The translations under genes and the position numbers were made by a program. Source: Bacteroidales bacterium (lineage in GTDB: Bacteria > Bacteroidota > Bacteroidia > Bacteroidales > UBA932). Taken from it: a stretch of 64,000 nucleotides of DNA. The notes beneath the pieces are model-generated. The model was not told the origin of the DNA. It saw nothing but the letters and a program-made list of their open reading frames with translations, and made no database searches. Positions 54,451-64,000 of this stretch are shown one piece after another; the first letter of the stretch is position 1; the number at the start of each line of letters is the position of its first letter. The stretch lies in contig JAFZIN010000028.1 in the NCBI GenBank assembly GCA_017554305.1, forward strand, positions 62,001 to 126,000, read 5' to 3'.

Positions 54451-54498
54451 CAAAAGTAACGCATTTATTGAAAAATGCAAAATTTTTCAGTAAATTTG
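54451..54498. promoter_or_regulatory. Interleaved divergent promoters (rplU and P-loop gene)
   Basis: Minus strand: TTG (54478-54480), 19 bases, TACTTTTG (54451-54458), serving rplU. Plus strand: TTG (54468-54470), 20 bases, TAAATTTG (54491-54498), serving the P-loop gene. The -33 box of each lies between the boxes of the other, so polymerase binding must be exclusive. The plus-strand box also rules out the upstream start at 54475 for the P-loop gene. Confidence 0.75.
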
Positions 54499-54519
54499 CT
54501 AGCCAATGCCCCAAATTGT

Positions 54520-55626
54520 ATGGATTCAATATCTCCATTTGAGTTCAACAACATAGTGACGGGGGATCAGTTCATAGGGCGTGAGAAGGAAGTCTCACGC
54601 CTAAAGGATTTGATTTCCAGGCACAAAAGTGTTGTAATCTACGGTCCGCCCAAGATAGGCAAGAGATCTTTGGTCTTCAACGCCCTCTCCCAGATGGACC
54701 TTAGAGGGGAGAATATTGCAATTTGTGATATAGATATCTTCAATATCAGGCATATAGACAAGCTTCTGAAGCGTCTGGCCAAGCACGTCACCAACACACT
54801 TTTTGAGACGGAGGAGGAGAAAAACCGAGCCGTATCTACCTATTTAAAGGGTATTCCTCTCACGATGGATACCCGCAATGACCTTTCAGACAGGCAGATA
54901 AAAACGCTGCTCAACTACCCTCAGGCTGCCGCACAGCTTAAAAAGGTGCACCTGTACATCTACTTCCAGCAGTTCCAGGATCTTCTGCTCTTTGACAAGC
55001 CAAAGAAGGTCCTCTCCCTTTTGGAGACCGCCTTTTCCGAGTCCAAACAGGTCTCCTGCATAATTGTGGGAGACAAGCGCAACGCCATGGATTCCATTTT
55101 CAACCAGATGAACTTCTTCCGAAACCTGGTGACGGAGATACCTTTAAAGCCTGTAAACAAGAAGGTCTTTGCAGAGTACATCTGCAACCGCTTCATTCAG
55201 AACGGCAAAAAGGCCTCTGCAAAAGAGGCTTCCACCATTTACGAGGCGGTGGGAGGAGACCCGTGGTATGTTCAGCATCTTGCGGAGATCTGCTATCTGA
55301 TGACAAAAGAGGAACTTACGCCGGAGATTGTAAACGAGGGCATCTCCCACCTGCTCAACATTCATGATTACGAGCTTCACAATACCATATATGATTTGAG
55401 CACTCACCAGCTGCAACTGATTAGGGCAATTCTCAACGGTGAGAGAAAGTTCAGTAAGACAGAGGTTTTGGAGAAATATCACCTCAACTCCTCCGCCAAC
55501 GTGAACAGGCTCAAGGAGGCTCTTACAAAGAAGGAGATAGTGACATTCGTCTCAAAAAATACAATAGAGTTTAACGATACCCTGCTCAAACTCTGGTTTG
55601 AGAACTACTTCTTTAACGATGATTAA
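54520..55626 (+). CDS. P-loop ATPase relative with altered Walker motifs
   Basis: 368 residues from the ATG at 54520. It resembles the archaeal-type ATPase/AAA_35-like group found in many Bacteroidota: an N-terminal P-loop domain and a C-terminal winged-helix region (about 290-368). Walker A reads GPPKIGKRS (42-50), with R49 where S/T should coordinate magnesium. The Walker B segment reads LYIYFQQFQDL (about 145-154), with glutamines where aspartate and glutamate are usual (DEFQ). The fold is kept but hydrolysis is doubtful. The sirtuin gene follows after 9 bases. No role is known. Confidence 0.82.
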   Translation: MDSISPFEFNNIVTGDQFIGREKEVSRLKDLISRHKSVVIYGPPKIGKRSLVFNALSQMDLRGENIAICDIDIFNIRHIDKLLKRLAKHVTNTLFETEEEKNRAVSTYLKGIPLTMDTRNDLSDRQIKTLLNYPQAAAQLKKVHLYIYFQQFQDLLLFDKPKKVLSLLETAFSESKQVSCIIVGDKRNAMDSIFNQMNFFRNLVTEIPLKPVNKKVFAEYICNRFIQNGKKASAKEASTIYEAVGGDPWYVQHLAEICYLMTKEELTPEIVNEGISHLLNIHDYELHNTIYDLSTHQLQLIRAILNGERKFSKTEVLEKYHLNSSANVNRLKEALTKKEIVTFVSKNTIEFNDTLLKLWFENYFFNDD

Positions 55627-55635
55627 CAAATAATT

Positions 55636-56331
55636 ATGGCTGAGAGAAAGAAAATAGCGGTATTAAGCGGTGCGGGTATCAGCGCGGAGAGCGGAATATC
55701 CACCTTCAGAGACAGCAACGGCCTCTGGGAGAACTACAAGGTGGAGGATGTAGCTACTGCGGACAGCTGGTACTGTTACGGCCGTAAGGAGTTGATGCTC
55801 AACTTCTACAATGCAAGAAGAAGAGACCTTAAGACTAAAGAGCCTAACCTTGCCCACAAGATTGTAGCGGAACTGGAAAAGTGGTACGACGTTACCGTTG
55901 CAACTCAGAACATAGACAACCTTCACGAGAGAGGTGGCAGCACCAACATCATCCATCTGCACGGTGAACTGACCAAGGCAAGGGGGGAAAATTCAGACTA
56001 TTACAACACTATCGAGATAGGATATAATGATATTCACCTGGGGGATAAGAGCCCGCGGGGAGAGCAGTTGCGCCCTCACATTGTTTGGTTCGGGGAGCAG
56101 GTGCCGGAGTTGGAGAGAGCGGCCAGAGCGGTTCAGCAGGCTGATATTATGATAGTTGTGGGGACCTCTCTTGCAGTATATCCGGCGGCGGGGCTGTTGG
56201 GTTACGCCAAGAGCAGTGCGGAGATTTACCTTGTAGACCCGGCAGATGTTCAGACACATTACAGATGTGAGCATATAAAAGAGAAGGCTACCGTGGGTAT
56301 GCAGAAACTTTTGGAAAGACTTAAAGGATAA
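55636..56331 (+). CDS. cobB: Sirtuin NAD-dependent deacylase, zinc-less class
   Basis: 231 residues with GAGISAESGISTFR, TQNIDNLHERGG and the catalytic H109 (HLHG). Y58 and R61 in FYNARRRDL form the class III acyl-selectivity motif seen in SIRT5 and E. coli CobB, predicting removal of succinyl or malonyl groups. The usual four zinc cysteines between the catalytic histidine and LRPHIVWFGE are absent, a known variant in bacteria. It is paired with the P-loop gene upstream. Confidence 0.93.
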   Translation: MAERKKIAVLSGAGISAESGISTFRDSNGLWENYKVEDVATADSWYCYGRKELMLNFYNARRRDLKTKEPNLAHKIVAELEKWYDVTVATQNIDNLHERGGSTNIIHLHGELTKARGENSDYYNTIEIGYNDIHLGDKSPRGEQLRPHIVWFGEQVPELERAARAVQQADIMIVVGTSLAVYPAAGLLGYAKSSAEIYLVDPADVQTHYRCEHIKEKATVGMQKLLERLKG

Positions 56332-56357: not shown

Positions 56358-58862
56358 ATGAGATTCAAAGCATTACTTCTATCAATTATGGCCACCGCCT
56401 TCCTGGCAGCGGGCTGTACTGAAGAGGACGACATCCAAATGCCTTATATGGATGTAAACTTGGCAAATCTCCAGTTAGATTTTGGCGAGGCTGCCTCTTC
56501 ACAGACTTTCACAATTACCGCAAACAGGTCTTGGAAAGTCACTTGCAACGAAACTTGGATTTCTGTTGAGCCGACAAGCGGAAGCGCTTCTGACGAGCCT
56601 CAGACAATTAAAGTTTCAGTTTTGGGCAATGACCTTTTCAACAGAACTGCAAGCGTAAAGGTCTCTATGGATTATGATTACAGAACCGTAACCGTTAACC
56701 AGAAGGGTGAATGGGGAAATCCTGAGGACCTTATTGTTTACAAGAACAACTTTGACGCAGAGGCTGCAACTCAGACCTACGGAACAGGCGGAAAGAGCTG
56801 GCCTTACACAGACCAGTCCGACTGCTGGAAGAACGCAACCGGTTCCGCAAAGAATGTTGTTTATACAATCAGCGGCGTTACAGTACGTAACAACAGTAAC
56901 TCCAACGGAAACTACTCTGATTATGAGGGTAGCGGAACCAACAACCTCTTCTTTGGTCAGAAGGCAGGTTTCAAGGTAGACAACATTGACGTAGTTGGCA
57001 GAGACTTTACACTCACATTCGGTAGTGAGAAATATCTTGCACAGGGCTCATCCGTATTTGACCCTGCAGAGTTCCACGTATGGTTGGGACCGGATCCTCA
57101 GCACATGATTGAACTTGCATATACCTTCCCTAACGGATTCAAGGATGGAAGATGGGATCTTGCAACCGCCTCATTCACCGTACCTGAGGGAACTACCAAA
57201 CTCTGCGTTTACTTTAAGCCTGACGTTGCCAGCGCCTACAGATTGGACGATGTAAACCTCAGCCGCTCAATAACTGCAGGAACTCCGGTAGACTTTACAA
57301 ACGGTGTAGATCCGGATGTTGATCCTGTAATTGGAACTGTAATGTACTACAACAACTTTGATAAGGAGACCGCTACACAGACCTACGGTTCAAAGGGTAA
57401 CAGCTGGCCTTACACAGACCAGTCTGACTGCTGGAGAAACGAGACCGGTGAGGGCGCAGCCAACGTTGCATACTACAACGCAGGAATAAGCGTAAGAGCA
57501 AACAGCGCATCTGACGGTTCATACTCAGACTATGCGGGTTCAGGTGCTAACAACCTCTTCTTTGCAAATAATAATAGATTCAAGATTAAGAAGATACAGA
57601 CCAAGAGCGAGTACCAGAACTATAGAATTTCATTCGGTGCGGAGAAGTATCTCTCTTCAGGTTCTTCCGTATTTGACCCTAAGGAATTCCACGTATATGT
57701 TGGAAAGGATACACTTCTTTGGACAGAACTTTCATACACATTTGCAGGCGGAGAGTACAAGACGGGAAGATGGGATGAGGCTTCAGTTACCATCACCATC
57801 CCTGCCGGAGTTTCAGAACTCTTCTTCTGGATTACCGCAGACGTTGCAAGTGCCTACAGATTAGATGACTTCAAGGTTACCGTATCTGAGGAGGCAGGCA
57901 CAGCTATTGACTTCTCACAGGGTAAGAAACTGGATCCGGATGATCCTACTCCTGGCGGAGACGAATTCAAGTATAAGAAGGTAACCACAGTTACTTCCGG
58001 TAAGTCTTATCTTATTGTAGCTAAGGATGCTTCAGGCTCTCTCTATGCAGCCGCTCCAATCCCTGCAAACAAGACTTATGGCTACCCTGGGAAGGTAGAC
58101 GTTACAGAAGATAACGGTGTCATCACCCTCACTTCAGATGAGAACGAATTCCTGATTGAGGCAGCTACAGGTTCTACCACCACTTATACATTGAAGCAGA
58201 AAGATGGCAGATACCACTATCAGACAGGAACTTACAACTCTATGAACGTTGCATCGGAGGTATCTACAGGCCAATACTGGACAATCACTCCGCAGAATGA
58301 CGGCACATTTGAGATTAAGAACACCTCAGTTAACAAGTGGTGGCAGTATTCAACCGGCCACTCATCCTGGGGTTCATACGCATCCGCTCAGAGCGACGGC
58401 ATTCTGCCATATCTCTATGAGAGACAGACAAGTGGCGGCGGCGGTGGAACAACCGGCACAGTGGAGTGGGCTATAGGTTCAGGTAACCAGACTTGGGCAG
58501 CAGAGACAGACGCAACTTACGGTGCCGGCTTCTCTGCTTCAGATAACGACATTAAAGTTGGCTACTACAAGCATACCGGTTCAAGTGCAGCTGTGACTGC
58601 AAATTCAGACCACATAAGGGTTTACAAGAACTCAGTACTTGTTATCACCCCAACCGGCGGAAAGAAGGTTAAGAAAGTTGAGATTGAGACAACAGGCACA
58701 GGCTACACTTCCAATATGGCTATTCTTGCACCGGGCAGCGGCAACGCTACAGCCAGCGGTACCACAATTACCTGGGAGGGAACAACAGCCGTAACTCCTT
58801 TTGTAGCACACGCTACGGGTGGTCAGGTAAGAGTAAAGACATTAAAAGTAACACTGGAATAA
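56358..58862 (+). CDS. Modular BACON surface lipoprotein
   Basis: 834 residues. Lipobox ending at C20 (FLAAGC); a BACON domain (about 35-115); two homologous ~180-residue beta-sandwich modules (about 125-305 and 328-512) that share SWPYTDQSDCW, GSSVFDP, EFHV and a DVASAYRLDD motif. A distinct module follows (about 536-690), then a C-terminal beta domain (about 698-834). The repeat modules resemble choice-of-anchor-J-type binding domains, but each has its own pattern. No catalytic site is evident. A nuclease gene follows after one base, so it probably binds substrate at the cell surface for the locus. Confidence 0.82.
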   Translation: MRFKALLLSIMATAFLAAGCTEEDDIQMPYMDVNLANLQLDFGEAASSQTFTITANRSWKVTCNETWISVEPTSGSASDEPQTIKVSVLGNDLFNRTASVKVSMDYDYRTVTVNQKGEWGNPEDLIVYKNNFDAEAATQTYGTGGKSWPYTDQSDCWKNATGSAKNVVYTISGVTVRNNSNSNGNYSDYEGSGTNNLFFGQKAGFKVDNIDVVGRDFTLTFGSEKYLAQGSSVFDPAEFHVWLGPDPQHMIELAYTFPNGFKDGRWDLATASFTVPEGTTKLCVYFKPDVASAYRLDDVNLSRSITAGTPVDFTNGVDPDVDPVIGTVMYYNNFDKETATQTYGSKGNSWPYTDQSDCWRNETGEGAANVAYYNAGISVRANSASDGSYSDYAGSGANNLFFANNNRFKIKKIQTKSEYQNYRISFGAEKYLSSGSSVFDPKEFHVYVGKDTLLWTELSYTFAGGEYKTGRWDEASVTITIPAGVSELFFWITADVASAYRLDDFKVTVSEEAGTAIDFSQGKKLDPDDPTPGGDEFKYKKVTTVTSGKSYLIVAKDASGSLYAAAPIPANKTYGYPGKVDVTEDNGVITLTSDENEFLIEAATGSTTTYTLKQKDGRYHYQTGTYNSMNVASEVSTGQYWTITPQNDGTFEIKNTSVNKWWQYSTGHSSWGSYASAQSDGILPYLYERQTSGGGGGTTGTVEWAIGSGNQTWAAETDATYGAGFSASDNDIKVGYYKHTGSSAAVTANSDHIRVYKNSVLVITPTGGKKVKKVEIETTGTGYTSNMAILAPGSGNATASGTTITWEGTTAVTPFVAHATGGQVRVKTLKVTLE

Positions 58863-58863
58863 G

Positions 58864-60060
58864 GTGAAACAGATAAGATACATACTGCTGTTTACGGCCC
58901 TGGCAACTATGATGTTGCTGGCGGCCGCCTGCGGCGGTGGCGGAGGAGGAAAAGGTAGCACGCCCACTCCAACCCCGGGTCCCGAACCTACAACTCCTGC
59001 CTCTGTAACCTTCAAACAGGCTAGCGTTGAGGCGGCTAAGGGAAGCCAGTTCATTGTCATTACGGCAAGCGGAGCCTGGACCCTTACCTCTTCTCAGAGT
59101 TGGCTCAAGGTGAGTCAGAGTTCCGGAAGCGGCAACAGTTCAACGGTTTCCGTCTCATACGAGGCGAACACCTCCAACGATGCCCGCACCGCGACACTTA
59201 CCTTAACCAGCTCAGGCTCAACTGCTACGGCAACTCTCACTCAGAAGGGAGCCGGCCCGTCAACCACAACGGTTACTTCACCGGGGTGGCTGGAACTGCC
59301 AGACCTTAAACTGGTAAGCGGACATAAGTTTGTCTATCACCAGTTTGCATCTGCAGGCAAGACGGGCAGAAGTTTCTCTTTTGACTGGAGTCCTACTGAT
59401 TTGGTTGCCATGTGGGTGGCATATCCGCTCAACAACTCCCTTAAGGGAAGCGGCAACAGATCAGACGCCTGGGGCTATGACCCGGATATTGTAACCGCAG
59501 ACCAGCCTACCCTCTTCTCAGCATACAAGGGGACAGGCAGTTACAGTTACGACAGAGGTCACCAGCTTCCTAGTGCAGACCGCCTCAGTTATCAGGACAA
59601 TGTGATGACCTTCTACTTCACCAATATGACTCCTCAGCTAAATGCCTTTAACGGAGGTATTTGGGCCAATGCGGAGACTCTGGTGAGAAACTGGGCTTCC
59701 AAGTGTGACACTCTCTACGTTATTACGGGATGTGTTGTGAAGGGAAGTTCTCAGAAGGCCTACGACAATAACAATAAGGCTGTTACCGTTCCGGTAGCTT
59801 ACTGGAAAGCGGTTCTCAGATACAGCAACGGAAGCACTCTGGGATACAACGGTTATATGGGATTGGCTATGTACTTTGAGCACAAGGCTTACAGTCAGGC
59901 CTCCATCACCAGTTCATCTACATCCATCGTGATGAGTATAGACGCCTTGGAGGCAAAGATTGGCATAGACCTCTTCCCCAACCTTGCTGCAAAAGTGGGC
60001 CAGAGTGTTTCAGATCAGGTTGAGGCTGAGGACCCTACAAAGAATTCTTACTGGTGGTAA
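58864..60060 (+). CDS. BACON lipoprotein with DNA/RNA non-specific endonuclease domain
   Basis: 398 residues starting at GTG 58864. Lipobox ending at C23 (LLAAAC), a low-complexity G/P linker, a BACON domain (about 48-128), and a C-terminal ββα-metal nuclease domain of the NUC1/NucA type (about 150-385). The key DRGHQ motif is at D230-Q234 (catalytic H233), followed by NMTPQ and a late aromatic end. It is anchored to the membrane, probably facing outward, and would cut DNA and RNA. It starts one base after the preceding gene. Confidence 0.92.
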   Translation: MKQIRYILLFTALATMMLLAAACGGGGGGKGSTPTPTPGPEPTTPASVTFKQASVEAAKGSQFIVITASGAWTLTSSQSWLKVSQSSGSGNSSTVSVSYEANTSNDARTATLTLTSSGSTATATLTQKGAGPSTTTVTSPGWLELPDLKLVSGHKFVYHQFASAGKTGRSFSFDWSPTDLVAMWVAYPLNNSLKGSGNRSDAWGYDPDIVTADQPTLFSAYKGTGSYSYDRGHQLPSADRLSYQDNVMTFYFTNMTPQLNAFNGGIWANAETLVRNWASKCDTLYVITGCVVKGSSQKAYDNNNKAVTVPVAYWKAVLRYSNGSTLGYNGYMGLAMYFEHKAYSQASITSSSTSIVMSIDALEAKIGIDLFPNLAAKVGQSVSDQVEAEDPTKNSYWW

Positions 60061-60063
60061 ACA

Positions 60064-61152
60064 ATGAGACCTATGAAGAAAAGCATTACATACAAAATAA
60101 TAATCCTGGCTGCACTGCTGCTCTTTGTCTTCCTCAAACCGGGGATGTCTCAGAAGAGTAAGAGCTATGTCATTGGATTTTACAATGTAGAGAACCTCTT
60201 TGATACGTTTCACGATATTGGCAAAGGAGACTTTGAATATCTGCCGGACGGTGCAAACGAGTGGACTGCTGCCAAATACAACAAGAAGCTCCACAATATG
60301 GCAACCGTCATCAGAGATATGAAGGAGGACAACAAAGCATGGCACGCCGTGTTGGGACTGAGTGAGGTTGAGAACCGCCACGTTTTGGAAGACCTTGTAA
60401 GTCAGCCGGAAATTGCGGATGCCAACTATCAGATAGTCCACTTTGAGGGACCGGATTACAGAGGTGTAGACGTTGCTCTGCTCTACGACCCTACCAAGTT
60501 CCAACTGCTGGAGGAGGATGCAATTCCTTACAACTTTGACAGCAAGAGGATTACTTTTACGGACACCGTGGATATGAAGAAATTTCTTACCAGAGATATT
60601 CTTATGGCCCGCGGTATGTTGGGAGGAGAGATGTTCGCTTTCTATGTGGCTCACCTTCCGTCCAGAGCAAAGACGGACGAGAGGAGATGCCGCGGTGCGG
60701 AAATCATTCACGATCATGCCGTTGAACTGATGAAGGAGTTCCCGGGTATTAAGATAGTTGTGATGGGAGATATGAACGACAACCCTACGGACAGAAGTAT
60801 GACCAAATTCCTTCACGGAAGAGAGAAGATAGATGAGTTGAAAGATGACGACTTCTTCAACCCATTCATCGCTATGTATAAAAACGGCTATGGTTCACTG
60901 GCTTACAGAGGTGCCTGGAATATCTTTGATATCATTATGGTAAACAAGAACCTGGCTCAGGCAAAAGAGGGCACTCTGAAGATTGTACCTATCGTGAAGA
61001 AAAAATATTACGGAAGAGTTTTCCACAAACCTTATATGGAGGTGCAGGAGGGACAGTATAAAGGTACGCCTTTCAGGACATTCCAAGGCGGCGCTTTCAT
61101 AGGAGGTTATAGCGATCACTTCCCTACTTACATAGTTGTAACAAATAAATAA
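60064..61152 (+). CDS. Exported endonuclease/exonuclease/phosphatase-family protein
   Basis: 362 residues; a second ATG three codons in (60073) is as likely. The signal peptide (to about residue 30) leads into an EEP/DNase I-like domain: FYNVENLFDT (N41), the catalytic glutamate E101 in LSEVENR, a GDMND motif, and D351-H352 in GGYSDHFP. The family includes nucleases and phosphodiesterases; this one is secreted and follows the nuclease lipoprotein by three bases. It probably trims nucleic acids or releases phosphate, but the substrate is unknown. Confidence 0.9.
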   Translation: MRPMKKSITYKIIILAALLLFVFLKPGMSQKSKSYVIGFYNVENLFDTFHDIGKGDFEYLPDGANEWTAAKYNKKLHNMATVIRDMKEDNKAWHAVLGLSEVENRHVLEDLVSQPEIADANYQIVHFEGPDYRGVDVALLYDPTKFQLLEEDAIPYNFDSKRITFTDTVDMKKFLTRDILMARGMLGGEMFAFYVAHLPSRAKTDERRCRGAEIIHDHAVELMKEFPGIKIVVMGDMNDNPTDRSMTKFLHGREKIDELKDDDFFNPFIAMYKNGYGSLAYRGAWNIFDIIMVNKNLAQAKEGTLKIVPIVKKKYYGRVFHKPYMEVQEGQYKGTPFRTFQGGAFIGGYSDHFPTYIVVTNK

Positions 61153-61163
61153 ATGATAATAAT

Positions 61164-64000
61164 ATGTTAAAGAAAATTTCCTTGGTAATTGCCATCCTCT
61201 TTACTGCCCTAAGCCTTCAGGCTCAGAGTAATACGGGTGGCGTAAAGGGAACGGTAATCAACCGTGCGGACCGTACTCCGGTCTACAACGTCTCACTTAC
61301 TCTTACAAAGAGCGGTGAGGTTGTTGCAAAGGGCACCACTGATTCCGACGGTAATTTCTTGATTTCCAACATTGCGGATGGAGTTTACTCCCTTGTCTTT
61401 GCTGCTGAGAATTACGTGCAGACAAGGGTGGGCGTTACCATTGCAGAGGGAAAGATTAAAGATCTCTTTACCGTTTCCCTATCTCCTGTAGTTACAATTT
61501 CAGACACAGGATCTGAGGAGGATCAGGCGGAGTTTGAGTTGGACGATGACGGTTATTCAGATAACCCTACCGTTCTCTACGGACAGAATGACGTCTTCAA
61601 CAACCTCTCTTACAACTTCTCCTCCATCAGATTTAAGGCTCGTGGTTATACCAGTGAGTCTCAGGAAGTTGAACTTGCCGGCATCAAACTCAACGATGCA
61701 ACTACCGGCAGTTCTCCGTTCTCTCTGTGGAGCGGTCTTAACGAGGCAACCAGAACCAAGTTCACCGTTAACGGCTCTGAAATTTCAAGCTACGGCTTTG
61801 GCGGTTACAACGGTCTTACCAACATCCCCGTTAATGCTTCCAACGTCCGTAAAGGCTGGAGAGCCAGCGTAATGACAAACAGCTCATTATACAGGCTCCG
61901 TCTTATGCTCACCTACGCTTCCGGCGTTCTGGACAACGGCTGGTCTTATGCATTCAGCGTATCTGCCCGTTTAGGCGGAAACGACTGGATTCAGGGCGTT
62001 TACTACAAGTCTTTCGGTTACTACTTTGGTATTGAGAAGAAGTTTGGTAAGGGAAGCAAGATTGGCGCTACGGTACTCGGAACTCCGGGCCAGAGGGGCG
62101 TGCAGATGGCTGCCACACAAGAGGTTTATGACCTTATGGGAGACAATATGTACAACCCTAACTGGGGATATCAGAACGGCAAAATGAGAAACGCCAGAGT
62201 GAGAAGGACTCACGAGCCTATCACAATCCTCAAGTATGACTATGAGCCTTCAGACAAATTCAGAGGAACCCTCACCGCTCTCTACAGATTCGGTATGAAC
62301 GGTTACTCCGCTTTGGACTGGTATGACGCATACGACGCTAAACCGGATTATTACAGAAATCTTCCTAGTTACTTCTGGAATGAAAATCCTGATTATAACC
62401 GCAATAACATGCAGAAATACCTCTGGACCAAAGATGCCTGGATGGCTGATCTGGATAACATTGCGCACGTAAATTGGGACCGTTTCTACAACGTTAACAA
62501 AAACAACAGAACCACTCACGGACTCCGTTCAAAGTATATTATTGAGGAGAGAAGAGTAGACCAGAAAGATTTCAACTTTGGAGGCAACCTCAAGTGGAAG
62601 ATTAAAGACTGGTTGACTCTCACCGGCGGATTTACCTACAAGTGGAACAGAAGTGACAACTACAAGAAGATAAAGGATCTTCTGGGCGGTGATTATTACG
62701 TTAATATTGACCAGTTTGCAGAGAGAGACTACGCTTCCAACGAGGCACTCATTCAGAATGACCTCAACTACTTCTTTAAGAACGGCAACGCAGAAATCCT
62801 CTATAAGGGAGACAGATACGGATACAGCTATATTGCAAATATCCGTAACCTCACCGGATGGATGAACTGGACTTTCAAATTCGGAGGCTTCCAGGCAGAC
62901 TTGGCCGGCAAAGTTGAAAGAACAAAATTCTGGAGAGACGGTAAGTACCGTAAAGGCCTCTTTGCAGGTCTGAATGAAGACGGCAGTGAGATTTTCTACA
63001 AGGGAGAACTCATTACCAAATATGACGTAAACGGCAAGCCTATAACCTCTTACGGCTCCAGTGAAAAACCTGAGTTTACAACCTGGAGTGCAAAGGGTAT
63101 GTTAAGTTACACATTCGGAGGCAGCCATCGCCTGAGCGTAAGCGGCGGTATCTTTACAGAACCTCCTAAGTTTAACAAGGCATTTGTCTCTCCAAGAACC
63201 AGAAACACTCTTATTCCTAACCTGGACAAGACTAAGATTGTATCTGCAGATGCAACCTACTCTTTCAATACCAACAGTGTAAACTTCAGACTCACAGGAT
63301 TCTTCACAACCATAAAGGATCAGACGGACCTTATGAGTATGTATGATGACGTTCAGAACTCCATGACCAACTTTGCTCTCAGAGGAATGGACGAGCGCCA
63401 CATGGGTATTGAGATGGGATTCAAGGTTCCTACCTTTATTACGGATCTCTCTCTTGTTGGAGCACTCAGTTACGGAGAGTACGTTTACACATCCAACCCA
63501 AGAATGACTCAGACCTTTGATAACACAACCGAATACATTGTAAATGATGAGGTTGTACCTTACTGGAAGAGTCATCCGGTATTCCTCAAAGACGGAAACG
63601 GCAACTATGTTAAGGATGAGAAGGGCAGATACGTTGTTGAGAAGTTCCAGAAGCACTATGTTCCGGGAACTCCGCAAATTGCTGCCTCTATGGGACTTTC
63701 ATACAACTTCAACTATTGGTTCATAGATGCTAACGTCAACTACTTTGACCGCTCTTACCTGAGCATGAACCCGTTCCTGAGAACAGACCTTCCAACCGCA
63801 GGACCTGATAAGATTATCACCCCTGCAGAGGTTGAGTATATGGCCGCTCAGGAGAAGTTCAAGAAGGCTTGGATAGTAAACCTCAGCATTGGTAAATCCT
63901 TCTACATCAAGCGCAAATATCAGTTGGGCTTCAATGTTAACGTCAACAACCTTCTCAACAACAAGGGTGTAAAGACGGGAGGATTTGAGCAGAGCCGCCT
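61164..64000 (+). CDS. TonB-dependent receptor, runs off window end
   Basis: An open frame of at least 945 codons from the ATG at 61164. A signal peptide (1-20, ending QAQS), a carboxypeptidase-regulatory-like domain (about 25-105, GVKGTVINRADRTPVYNVSL), a plug-like region, and many alternating barrel strands. It is reached 11 bases after the nuclease-family gene, so it belongs to the same transcript. Such receptors import nutrients across the outer membrane with TonB-ExbB energy. In this context nucleic-acid fragments are the likely cargo (inference). The C terminus is not in the window. Confidence 0.9.
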   Translation, partial: MLKKISLVIAILFTALSLQAQSNTGGVKGTVINRADRTPVYNVSLTLTKSGEVVAKGTTDSDGNFLISNIADGVYSLVFAAENYVQTRVGVTIAEGKIKDLFTVSLSPVVTISDTGSEEDQAEFELDDDGYSDNPTVLYGQNDVFNNLSYNFSSIRFKARGYTSESQEVELAGIKLNDATTGSSPFSLWSGLNEATRTKFTVNGSEISSYGFGGYNGLTNIPVNASNVRKGWRASVMTNSSLYRLRLMLTYASGVLDNGWSYAFSVSARLGGNDWIQGVYYKSFGYYFGIEKKFGKGSKIGATVLGTPGQRGVQMAATQEVYDLMGDNMYNPNWGYQNGKMRNARVRRTHEPITILKYDYEPSDKFRGTLTALYRFGMNGYSALDWYDAYDAKPDYYRNLPSYFWNENPDYNRNNMQKYLWTKDAWMADLDNIAHVNWDRFYNVNKNNRTTHGLRSKYIIEERRVDQKDFNFGGNLKWKIKDWLTLTGGFTYKWNRSDNYKKIKDLLGGDYYVNIDQFAERDYASNEALIQNDLNYFFKNGNAEILYKGDRYGYSYIANIRNLTGWMNWTFKFGGFQADLAGKVERTKFWRDGKYRKGLFAGLNEDGSEIFYKGELITKYDVNGKPITSYGSSEKPEFTTWSAKGMLSYTFGGSHRLSVSGGIFTEPPKFNKAFVSPRTRNTLIPNLDKTKIVSADATYSFNTNSVNFRLTGFFTTIKDQTDLMSMYDDVQNSMTNFALRGMDERHMGIEMGFKVPTFITDLSLVGALSYGEYVYTSNPRMTQTFDNTTEYIVNDEVVPYWKSHPVFLKDGNGNYVKDEKGRYVVEKFQKHYVPGTPQIAASMGLSYNFNYWFIDANVNYFDRSYLSMNPFLRTDLPTAGPDKIITPAEVEYMAAQEKFKKAWIVNLSIGKSFYIKRKYQLGFNVNVNNLLNNKGVKTGGFEQSR

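What the first reader, a model, noticed from the sequence alone, without database searches (positions are those of the whole stretch)
56358..64000. Candidate nucleic-acid scavenging locus built like a glycan-utilisation locus
Seen: four tightly packed genes (gaps of 1, 3 and 11 bases) that are all exported: a lipoprotein with a BACON domain and two repeated binding-type modules, a BACON lipoprotein carrying a NucA-type endonuclease, a secreted DNase I-fold enzyme and a TonB-dependent receptor. Known: in Bacteroidota, a surface lipoprotein, a surface enzyme and a TonB receptor in one operon capture and import large polymers. Inference: the polymer here is DNA or RNA, cut at the surface, trimmed in the periplasm and imported as oligonucleotides or nucleotides. 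No SusD homolog is seen inside the window, and the first lipoprotein could take that role.
Basis: partly seen in the sequence, partly recalled or inferred. Interest (0 to 1): 0.72.

Follow-up and report, generated by a model that had tools for sequence, protein, structure and literature searches.

The report
Likely outer-membrane DNA import operon
These genes look like a relative's version of an outer-membrane gate that a duck bacterium needs to take up DNA from outside, here with two DNA-cutting enzymes in the same operon, which offers a testable idea of how such bacteria bring DNA through their outer membrane.

Summary
In detail: four genes as described, catalytic residues conserved in both nucleases, a receptor with the fold of TonB-dependent transporters. 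The window ends too early: the receptor stops at 64103 and a fifth gene, a DUF5689 lipoprotein, starts 12 bases later. Receptor plus DUF5689 lipoprotein match the pair RA0C_RS04915/RA0C_RS04920 of Riemerella anatipestifer; clean deletion of either abolishes natural transformation there (PMC8459023). I fetched that locus: full-length receptor homology (28%, E 7e-102), DUF5689 next to it, a homologous EEP nuclease beside it. DUF5689 follows the receptor in 38 of 40 and 40 of 40 further loci; in 16 distant-receptor control loci, 1. A nuclease-bearing operon form sits in one well-supported clade. The own genome has ComEC, a ComEA-like protein and DprA; no secretin was found. Best reading: an outer-membrane DNA import locus, most likely for natural transformation, with nucleases built in. 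The receptor type occurs in roughly half of 393 genomes of the window's order; the paper gives RS04915 homologues for Flavobacteriaceae only, though it also calls the set widespread in the phylum.

The parts
56358..58862 (+). Gene 1 (LIP): 834-aa lipoprotein, BACON domain, two repeated beta modules, further beta modules; lipobox C20 followed by TEEDD (surface-export-like)
58864..60060 (+). Gene 2 (NUC): 398-aa BACON lipoprotein with a DNA/RNA non-specific endonuclease domain, GTG start
   Evidence: closest solved structures 2o3b, 1zm8, 1ql0
60064..61152 (+). Gene 3 (EEP): 362-aa exported Exo_endo_phos_3 (DNase I-fold) enzyme, no lipobox, EEP motifs conserved
61164..64000 (+). Gene 4 (REC): outer-membrane TonB-type receptor, 979 aa; continues to window-equivalent 64103. 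The fifth gene of the set, a 335-aa DUF5689 lipoprotein, follows at window-equivalent 64116-65123 (L003:116-1123)
54475..56331 (+). Upstream AAA-type ATPase (54475-55626) and SIR2-family gene (55636-56331), same strand, 26 bases before gene 1; found at 6 other genus loci but not at G271/G279, so probably neighbours rather than part of the core

Best explanation
The locus is an outer-membrane DNA import operon, the nuclease-bearing form in this clade of the receptor/DUF5689 pair that R. anatipestifer needs for natural transformation. Proposed working: gene 1 and the DUF5689 lipoprotein hold DNA at the surface (inferred; neither has been shown to bind DNA); the TonB-type receptor passes it across the outer membrane (shown only as a need for the homologue in R. 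anatipestifer, where two TonB mutants also transform less); the NucA-type lipoprotein and the periplasmic EEP enzyme cut it or remove one strand (inferred from families and conserved active sites); the ComEA-like helix-hairpin-helix protein and a short ComEC then take a strand to the cytoplasm, where DprA protects it (genes present, function inferred). DNA import by this receptor I hold at about 0.8; that its main purpose is transformation, at about 0.6.
For: Receptor vs the R. anatipestifer receptor: 28% over 1011 aligned columns, E 7e-102; EEP 33%, 8e-59; DUF5689 33% over 216, 1e-18. In R. anatipestifer the order is comEC, two genes, EEP, receptor, DUF5689; counting locus tags in fives from comEC (RS04895) makes the last three RS04910, RS04915 and RS04920. 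Clean deletions of RS04915 and RS04920 fall below detection (about 4e-10 against 5.4e-5). tonBA and tonBB mutants transform less. DUF5689 lies directly downstream of the receptor in 38 of 40 fetched phylum loci and 40 of 40 fetched order loci, an EEP gene within 1.5 kb upstream in 26 of 40 and 28 of 40; among 16 distant-receptor loci, some on short contigs, DUF5689 is near in 1 and EEP in 0. The 94 receptors lie in one group (100*) apart from 8 distant ones, Riemerella's inside; the split is 100/100 with IQ-TREE on 32 chosen rows. Own genome: ComEC (TIGR00360 over cut-off), a ComEA-like HhH protein (TIGR00426 over, TIGR01259 under cut-off) aligned end to end with the likely RS02645, DprA over cut-off, DUF1343/NamZ. 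Secretin matches are missing in 22 of 24 genomes searched, the own among them.
Against: No transformation is known to me in this unnamed genus. ComEC is shortened: 361 aa in the own genome, 356-445 aa in the 12 genus loci read (up to 575), against 690-713 in 9 of 15 order relatives with a match and 586 in Riemerella. The competence core does not track the receptor: in the genus the receptor is full-length in 8 of 25 genomes, ComEC matches in 24 of 25, HhH in 25 of 25; in the phylum HhH matches are wider than the receptor, and 5 of the 46 receptor carriers (G129, G144, G215, G239, G275) have no HhH match at 1e-8. Two further receptor loci, L047 and L101, show no DUF5689 or EEP. The Riemerella stretch read has no NucA-type gene or gene 1, and RS04910 is not among its tested mutants. 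Riemerella's DUF5689 protein (NCBIfam M949_1556 family) is linked elsewhere to LPS and antigenicity, so the phenotype could be indirect. The authors put the tonBB effect down to iron uptake. Two nucleases also fit feeding. ComF and YifB/ComM were not searched.
Confidence: 0.62

Rival explanations
1. Nucleic-acid scavenging: the same parts cut extracellular DNA or RNA and import oligonucleotides as a source of phosphate, nitrogen or nucleosides.
For: Two active-looking nucleases in one operon; the short ComEC; competence genes uncoupled from the receptor in the genus; the nuclease-bearing operon form is confined to part of the receptor tree, as an ecological add-on might be.
Against: The receptor and DUF5689 homologues are essential for transformation in R. 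anatipestifer, where EEP sits beside them without the second nuclease. The two genes tested after the receptor are DUF5689 and an M3 peptidase, not nucleotide-handling genes; a gene that by eye looks like a calcineurin-type phosphoesterase lies on the other strand more than 10 kb further on (L003:14695-16728), untested.
Confidence: 0.26
2. Surface nuclease locus for defence or biofilm remodelling, with the receptor importing something else.
For: NucA-type exported enzymes can act alone (recalled). The upstream ATPase matches a candidate defence family, PDC-S27, at 7.8e-10.
Against: EEP and DUF5689 stay with this receptor in loci without the nuclease gene. The ATPase and SIR2 genes have no match at the G271 and G279 loci, and the other 6 of 7 proteins tested give no PADLOC match at 0.001.
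Confidence: 0.06
3. The conserved pair works on the cell surface (LPS or antigen assembly), and the loss of transformation in R. anatipestifer is indirect.
For: M949_1556, the name-bearer of the lipoprotein family that Riemerella's DUF5689 protein belongs to, is listed among LPS-associated genes.
Against: The receptor and DUF5689 deletions are below detection like the comEC insertion, and an EEP gene keeps company with the pair in 54 of 80 fetched loci.
Confidence: 0.06

Closest known systems
R. anatipestifer RA0C_RS04915/RA0C_RS04920 natural-transformation pair (PMC8459023)
   Same: Full-length receptor homology, DUF5689 lipoprotein directly downstream, homologous EEP gene next to the receptor
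   Different: Here EEP is in the operon on the same strand, a NucA-type nuclease and a BACON lipoprotein are added, and the DUF5689 protein has no match to the choice-of-anchor J tail of Riemerella's. The paper says both that the homologues are widespread in the phylum and that RS04915's was found only in Flavobacteriaceae (its supplementary table not seen)
Sus-like (SusC/SusD) polymer import loci
   Same: TonB-type receptor with lipoproteins and enzymes in one operon
   Different: No SusD or glycan enzyme seen; nucleases instead; the receptor has no plug or barrel Pfam hit
Pneumococcal EndA and the ComEC C-terminal nuclease (PMC8579336, passages)
   Same: A nuclease that processes incoming DNA; the window's ComEC has no room for a C-terminal nuclease part
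   Different: EndA sits at the cytoplasmic membrane of a Gram-positive; kinship of gene 2 with EndA was not tested here
ExeM/NucH extracellular DNases
   Same: Weak match of the EEP protein (1.2e-5)
   Different: 24.4 bits against a cut-off of 300

Membership tests
RS04915/RS04920-type transformation pair | receptor homologous over its whole length and grouped with the Riemerella receptor | tested here: met
RS04915/RS04920-type transformation pair | DUF5689 lipoprotein directly downstream | tested here: met
   12-base gap; PF18942 2.4e-47; homologous to Riemerella's
RS04915/RS04920-type transformation pair | DUF5689 protein has a choice-of-anchor J tail | tested here: not met
   NF038128 found in Riemerella's but not in the window's 335-aa protein; likeness to gene 1's modules inconclusive (best 12.8% probability)
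RS04915/RS04920-type transformation pair | both genes needed for transformation | not testable with these tools
   shown only in R. anatipestifer
RS04915/RS04920-type transformation pair | ComEC, ComEA-like HhH and DprA in the genome | tested here: met
   ComEC is a shortened form
SusCD polymer import locus | SusD-family lipoprotein | tested here: not met
   no SusD match in gene 1 or in the next two genes
SusCD polymer import locus | TonB-dependent transporter fold | tested here: met
Type-IV-pilus/secretin DNA uptake | secretin in the outer membrane | tested here: not met
   no PF00263 match in the own genome (89.5% complete), and in 22 of 24 genomes in all
Endonuclease_NS (PF01223) | score over the curated cut-off and DRGH motif | tested here: met
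   131.7 bits against 23; motif in 7 of 7
ExeM/NucH DNases (NF033681) | score over the curated cut-off | tested here: not met
   24.4 against 300

The most novel reading that the evidence does not exclude
In this order a TonB-powered transporter, not a type IV pilus, is the outer-membrane gate for DNA. In the window's clade the gate shares one operon with two nucleases that make single strands for a ComEC without its own nuclease part, so import and strand processing form one surface-to-periplasm machine. It would also be a candidate for the unknown outer-membrane step of competent Bacteroidota such as Porphyromonas gingivalis (presence of the receptor there was not tested).
Probability: 0.33. 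Interest if true: 0.87.

Novelty: new variant of a known kind. Interest (0 to 1): 0.7.

Why it matters
How DNA crosses the outer membrane in Bacteroidota is open: a 2024 paper on P. gingivalis says that its import into the periplasm remains unclear (PMC11532111, passages), and PMC8579336 (passages) calls strand degradation in organisms whose ComEC lacks the C-terminal nuclease an open question. The receptor-DUF5689-EEP set, and its nuclease-bearing form here, names concrete genes for both questions. It also shows that a locus that looks like nutrient scavenging may be a gene-transfer device.

Tried and rejected
SusD-like role for gene 1: the model is poor (pLDDT 59.9, pTM 0.29), mostly beta, its best fold match is a BACON-bearing chain (3zmr) and no SusD is among the 50 listed of 1291 with E up to 10. 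Likeness of gene 1's modules to the choice-of-anchor J tail of DUF5689 proteins: best 12.8% probability, left open. Co-occurrence as proof of transformation: tested with ComEC and HhH and not supportive. Distant receptors of the genus (about 800-870 aa) as alternative gates: the genus loci listed (L054, L056, L058, L062) lie mostly among housekeeping genes (by eye; L054 also beside what looks like a SusC/SusD-type pair), so they served as control. NCBIfam gave no match for gene 1; PDB searches with the receptor alignment reached mainly carboxypeptidase-regulatory-like domains, and those with the EEP and DUF5689 alignments nothing meaningful. L196 and L223 have a nuclease gene near, not next to, the receptor; they carry the nuclease label in the tree, which therefore needs 3 changes for it, and I left them out of the 32 rows.

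Literature searches behind statements on print. DUF5689 appears in one held paper; the RS04915 and RS04920 tags in one, the ComEC tag in two. Subscription papers and preprints are not held.

Full report
WHAT IS THERE. The four genes are as described. The window is G000:C27:62001-126000 of a 1.82 Mb assembly in 32 contigs, 89.5% complete; no call names the organism. Past its end the receptor stops at window-equivalent 64103 (979 aa) and a DUF5689 lipoprotein follows after 12 bases, then an M3 peptidase. Pfam gives the receptor a carboxypeptidase-regulatory domain and no plug or barrel, but its model (pLDDT 66.9, pTM 0.61) matches TonB-dependent transporters in the 50 listed hits; 93 of 94 receptors end in an alternating strand by a simple rule of mine, 68 of 94 in F. 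Active-site residues of both nucleases are conserved.

THE KEY LINK. A literature search turned up a R. anatipestifer transposon screen (PMC8459023; abstract, found passages and sections 4 and 17-20 seen). Two genes essential for natural transformation there are a carboxypeptidase-regulatory outer-membrane protein (RS04915) and the DUF5689 protein downstream (RS04920); clean deletions of each are below detection. I located the locus with a published comEC primer and read it. It holds comEC, two genes, a divergent EEP gene, the receptor and the DUF5689 gene. Homology to the window's proteins is clear: E 7e-102, 8e-59 and 1e-18 for receptor, EEP and DUF5689. That these are RS04915 and RS04920 rests on gene order, domains and tag numbering.

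HOW WIDE. Receptors of this type (my count at 350 bits or more) are in 46 of 296 phylum genomes, all within the window's class, and at E up to 1e-60 in 206 of 393 genomes of the window's order. By my count 192 of these reach 1e-100, but G040, one of them, groups with distant receptors in the tree, and 8 more lie between 1e-110 and 1e-130; 183 are at 1e-130 or below. I fetched 40 of the 45 other phylum carriers (not fetched: G183, G094, G171, G263, G148) and 40 order loci that I picked for spread over families and contig room. DUF5689 is directly downstream in 38 of 40 and 40 of 40; EEP lies within 1.5 kb upstream in 26 of 40 (24 divergent, 2 same strand) and 28 of 40 (24 and 4); some misses are at contig ends. 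Of the two phylum misses, L116 has a DUF5689 frame that overlaps the receptor beyond my limit and L101 has none. Of five further carriers outside the genus fetched first (L044-L047, L063) DUF5689 is next in four and EEP in two; L047 shows neither. Control: of 16 distant-receptor loci, several on short contigs, DUF5689 is near in 1 and EEP in 0. The local profiles were built partly from the family itself; Pfam confirmed DUF5689 in the window's genome, L094, L095 and Riemerella.

HOW IT EVOLVED. In the FastTree receptor tree the 94 members group apart from 8 distant rows (100*), Riemerella inside. Fifteen loci with the nuclease gene form one group (99*): the window's family, G271/G279 of family f18, and G630 of family f134, where the nuclease gene lies downstream instead. 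Two other loci (L196, L223) have a nuclease gene nearby, so the label needs 3 changes in all. IQ-TREE on 32 chosen rows, without those two, gives 100/100 for the nuclease group (10 rows) and for the split from distant receptors. Same-strand EEP genes form one group (14 of 14, 99*) among divergent ones in a midpoint-rooted tree. The simplest history is an older receptor-DUF5689-EEP set, then a nuclease gene joining and EEP turning round in one lineage; this is inference.

HOW IT MAY WORK. Acidic residues after the lipid cysteine resemble the surface-export signal of PMC5080379 (abstract seen). Two or more occur in 9 of 10 gene 1 relatives and in 43 of the 68 DUF5689 proteins in which my pattern found a lipobox (of 106); for nucleases the pattern found 10 of 14, none with two, but it missed the one of G279, which reads CSKDDSE; in the window's genus 0 of 7 nucleases have an acidic residue there. 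EEP matched a lipobox in 3 of 71. This puts the capture proteins outside and EEP in the periplasm; the nuclease's side is unsure. Steps shown: none in this organism. Steps carried over from R. anatipestifer: need for the receptor, for DUF5689 and for TonB (PMC8383284 seen as passages; the authors put the tonBB effect down to iron). Steps inferred from families: cutting, and the roles of the ComEA-like protein, ComEC and DprA. The window's ComEC is 361 aa, with the next gene on the other strand right after it, so no C-terminal nuclease part; PMC8579336 (passages) says that almost half of ComECs lack that part and that strand degradation there is open. The operon's nucleases could fill that role, which is my inference. 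No secretin match is in the own genome.

AGAINST. In the genus 8 of 25 genomes have the full receptor while ComEC matches in 24 of 25 and HhH in 25 of 25, so competence genes persist without it; the assemblies are 82-96% complete, so some absences may be gaps. Five of the 46 phylum carriers have no HhH match at 1e-8. The DUF5689 lipoprotein family is linked to LPS in another R. anatipestifer strain (listing and passages of citing papers; original not seen). Gene 1 and the nuclease are absent from the Riemerella stretch read. Nutritional use is therefore kept at 0.26.

VERDICT. Observation confirmed; first interpretation partly supported: the substrate and import idea are good, the purpose is more likely DNA uptake for transformation, in a new nuclease-bearing variant of a known pair.

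Noticed in passing
L141:1619-2704 (own genome) and L142-L152: ComEC is 356-445 aa in the 12 genus loci read, in species with and without the receptor, against 690-713 aa in 9 of 15 order relatives with a match.
   Followed up: partly
window 54475-56331 and L003:1132-3156: An AAA-type ATPase, a SIR2-family gene and an M3 peptidase flank the operon on the same strand; all three recur at 6 further genus loci (the M3 peptidase partly at a seventh) but not at G271/G279. The ATPase matches PADLOC family PDC-S27 at 7.8e-10.
   Followed up: partly
L003:3249-12030: Two very large repeat-type proteins and a 462-aa gene lie between the M3 peptidase and the next genes; in the near relative G020 (L037) the M3 peptidase is followed directly by the counterpart of those next genes, so this looks like an insertion.
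   Followed up: no
L094:10709-11743 and L094:15067-16083: G279 has two EEP genes at the locus, one in the operon and one on the other strand beyond gene 1; they fall in different parts of the EEP tree.
   Followed up: partly
G655:C22:136155-136658 and G499:C1:3688036-3688536: The only two of 24 searched genomes with a secretin match.
   Followed up: no
G263:C19:401291-404102: The receptor is matched as two adjoining open frames, so it looks split in this genome.
   Followed up: no
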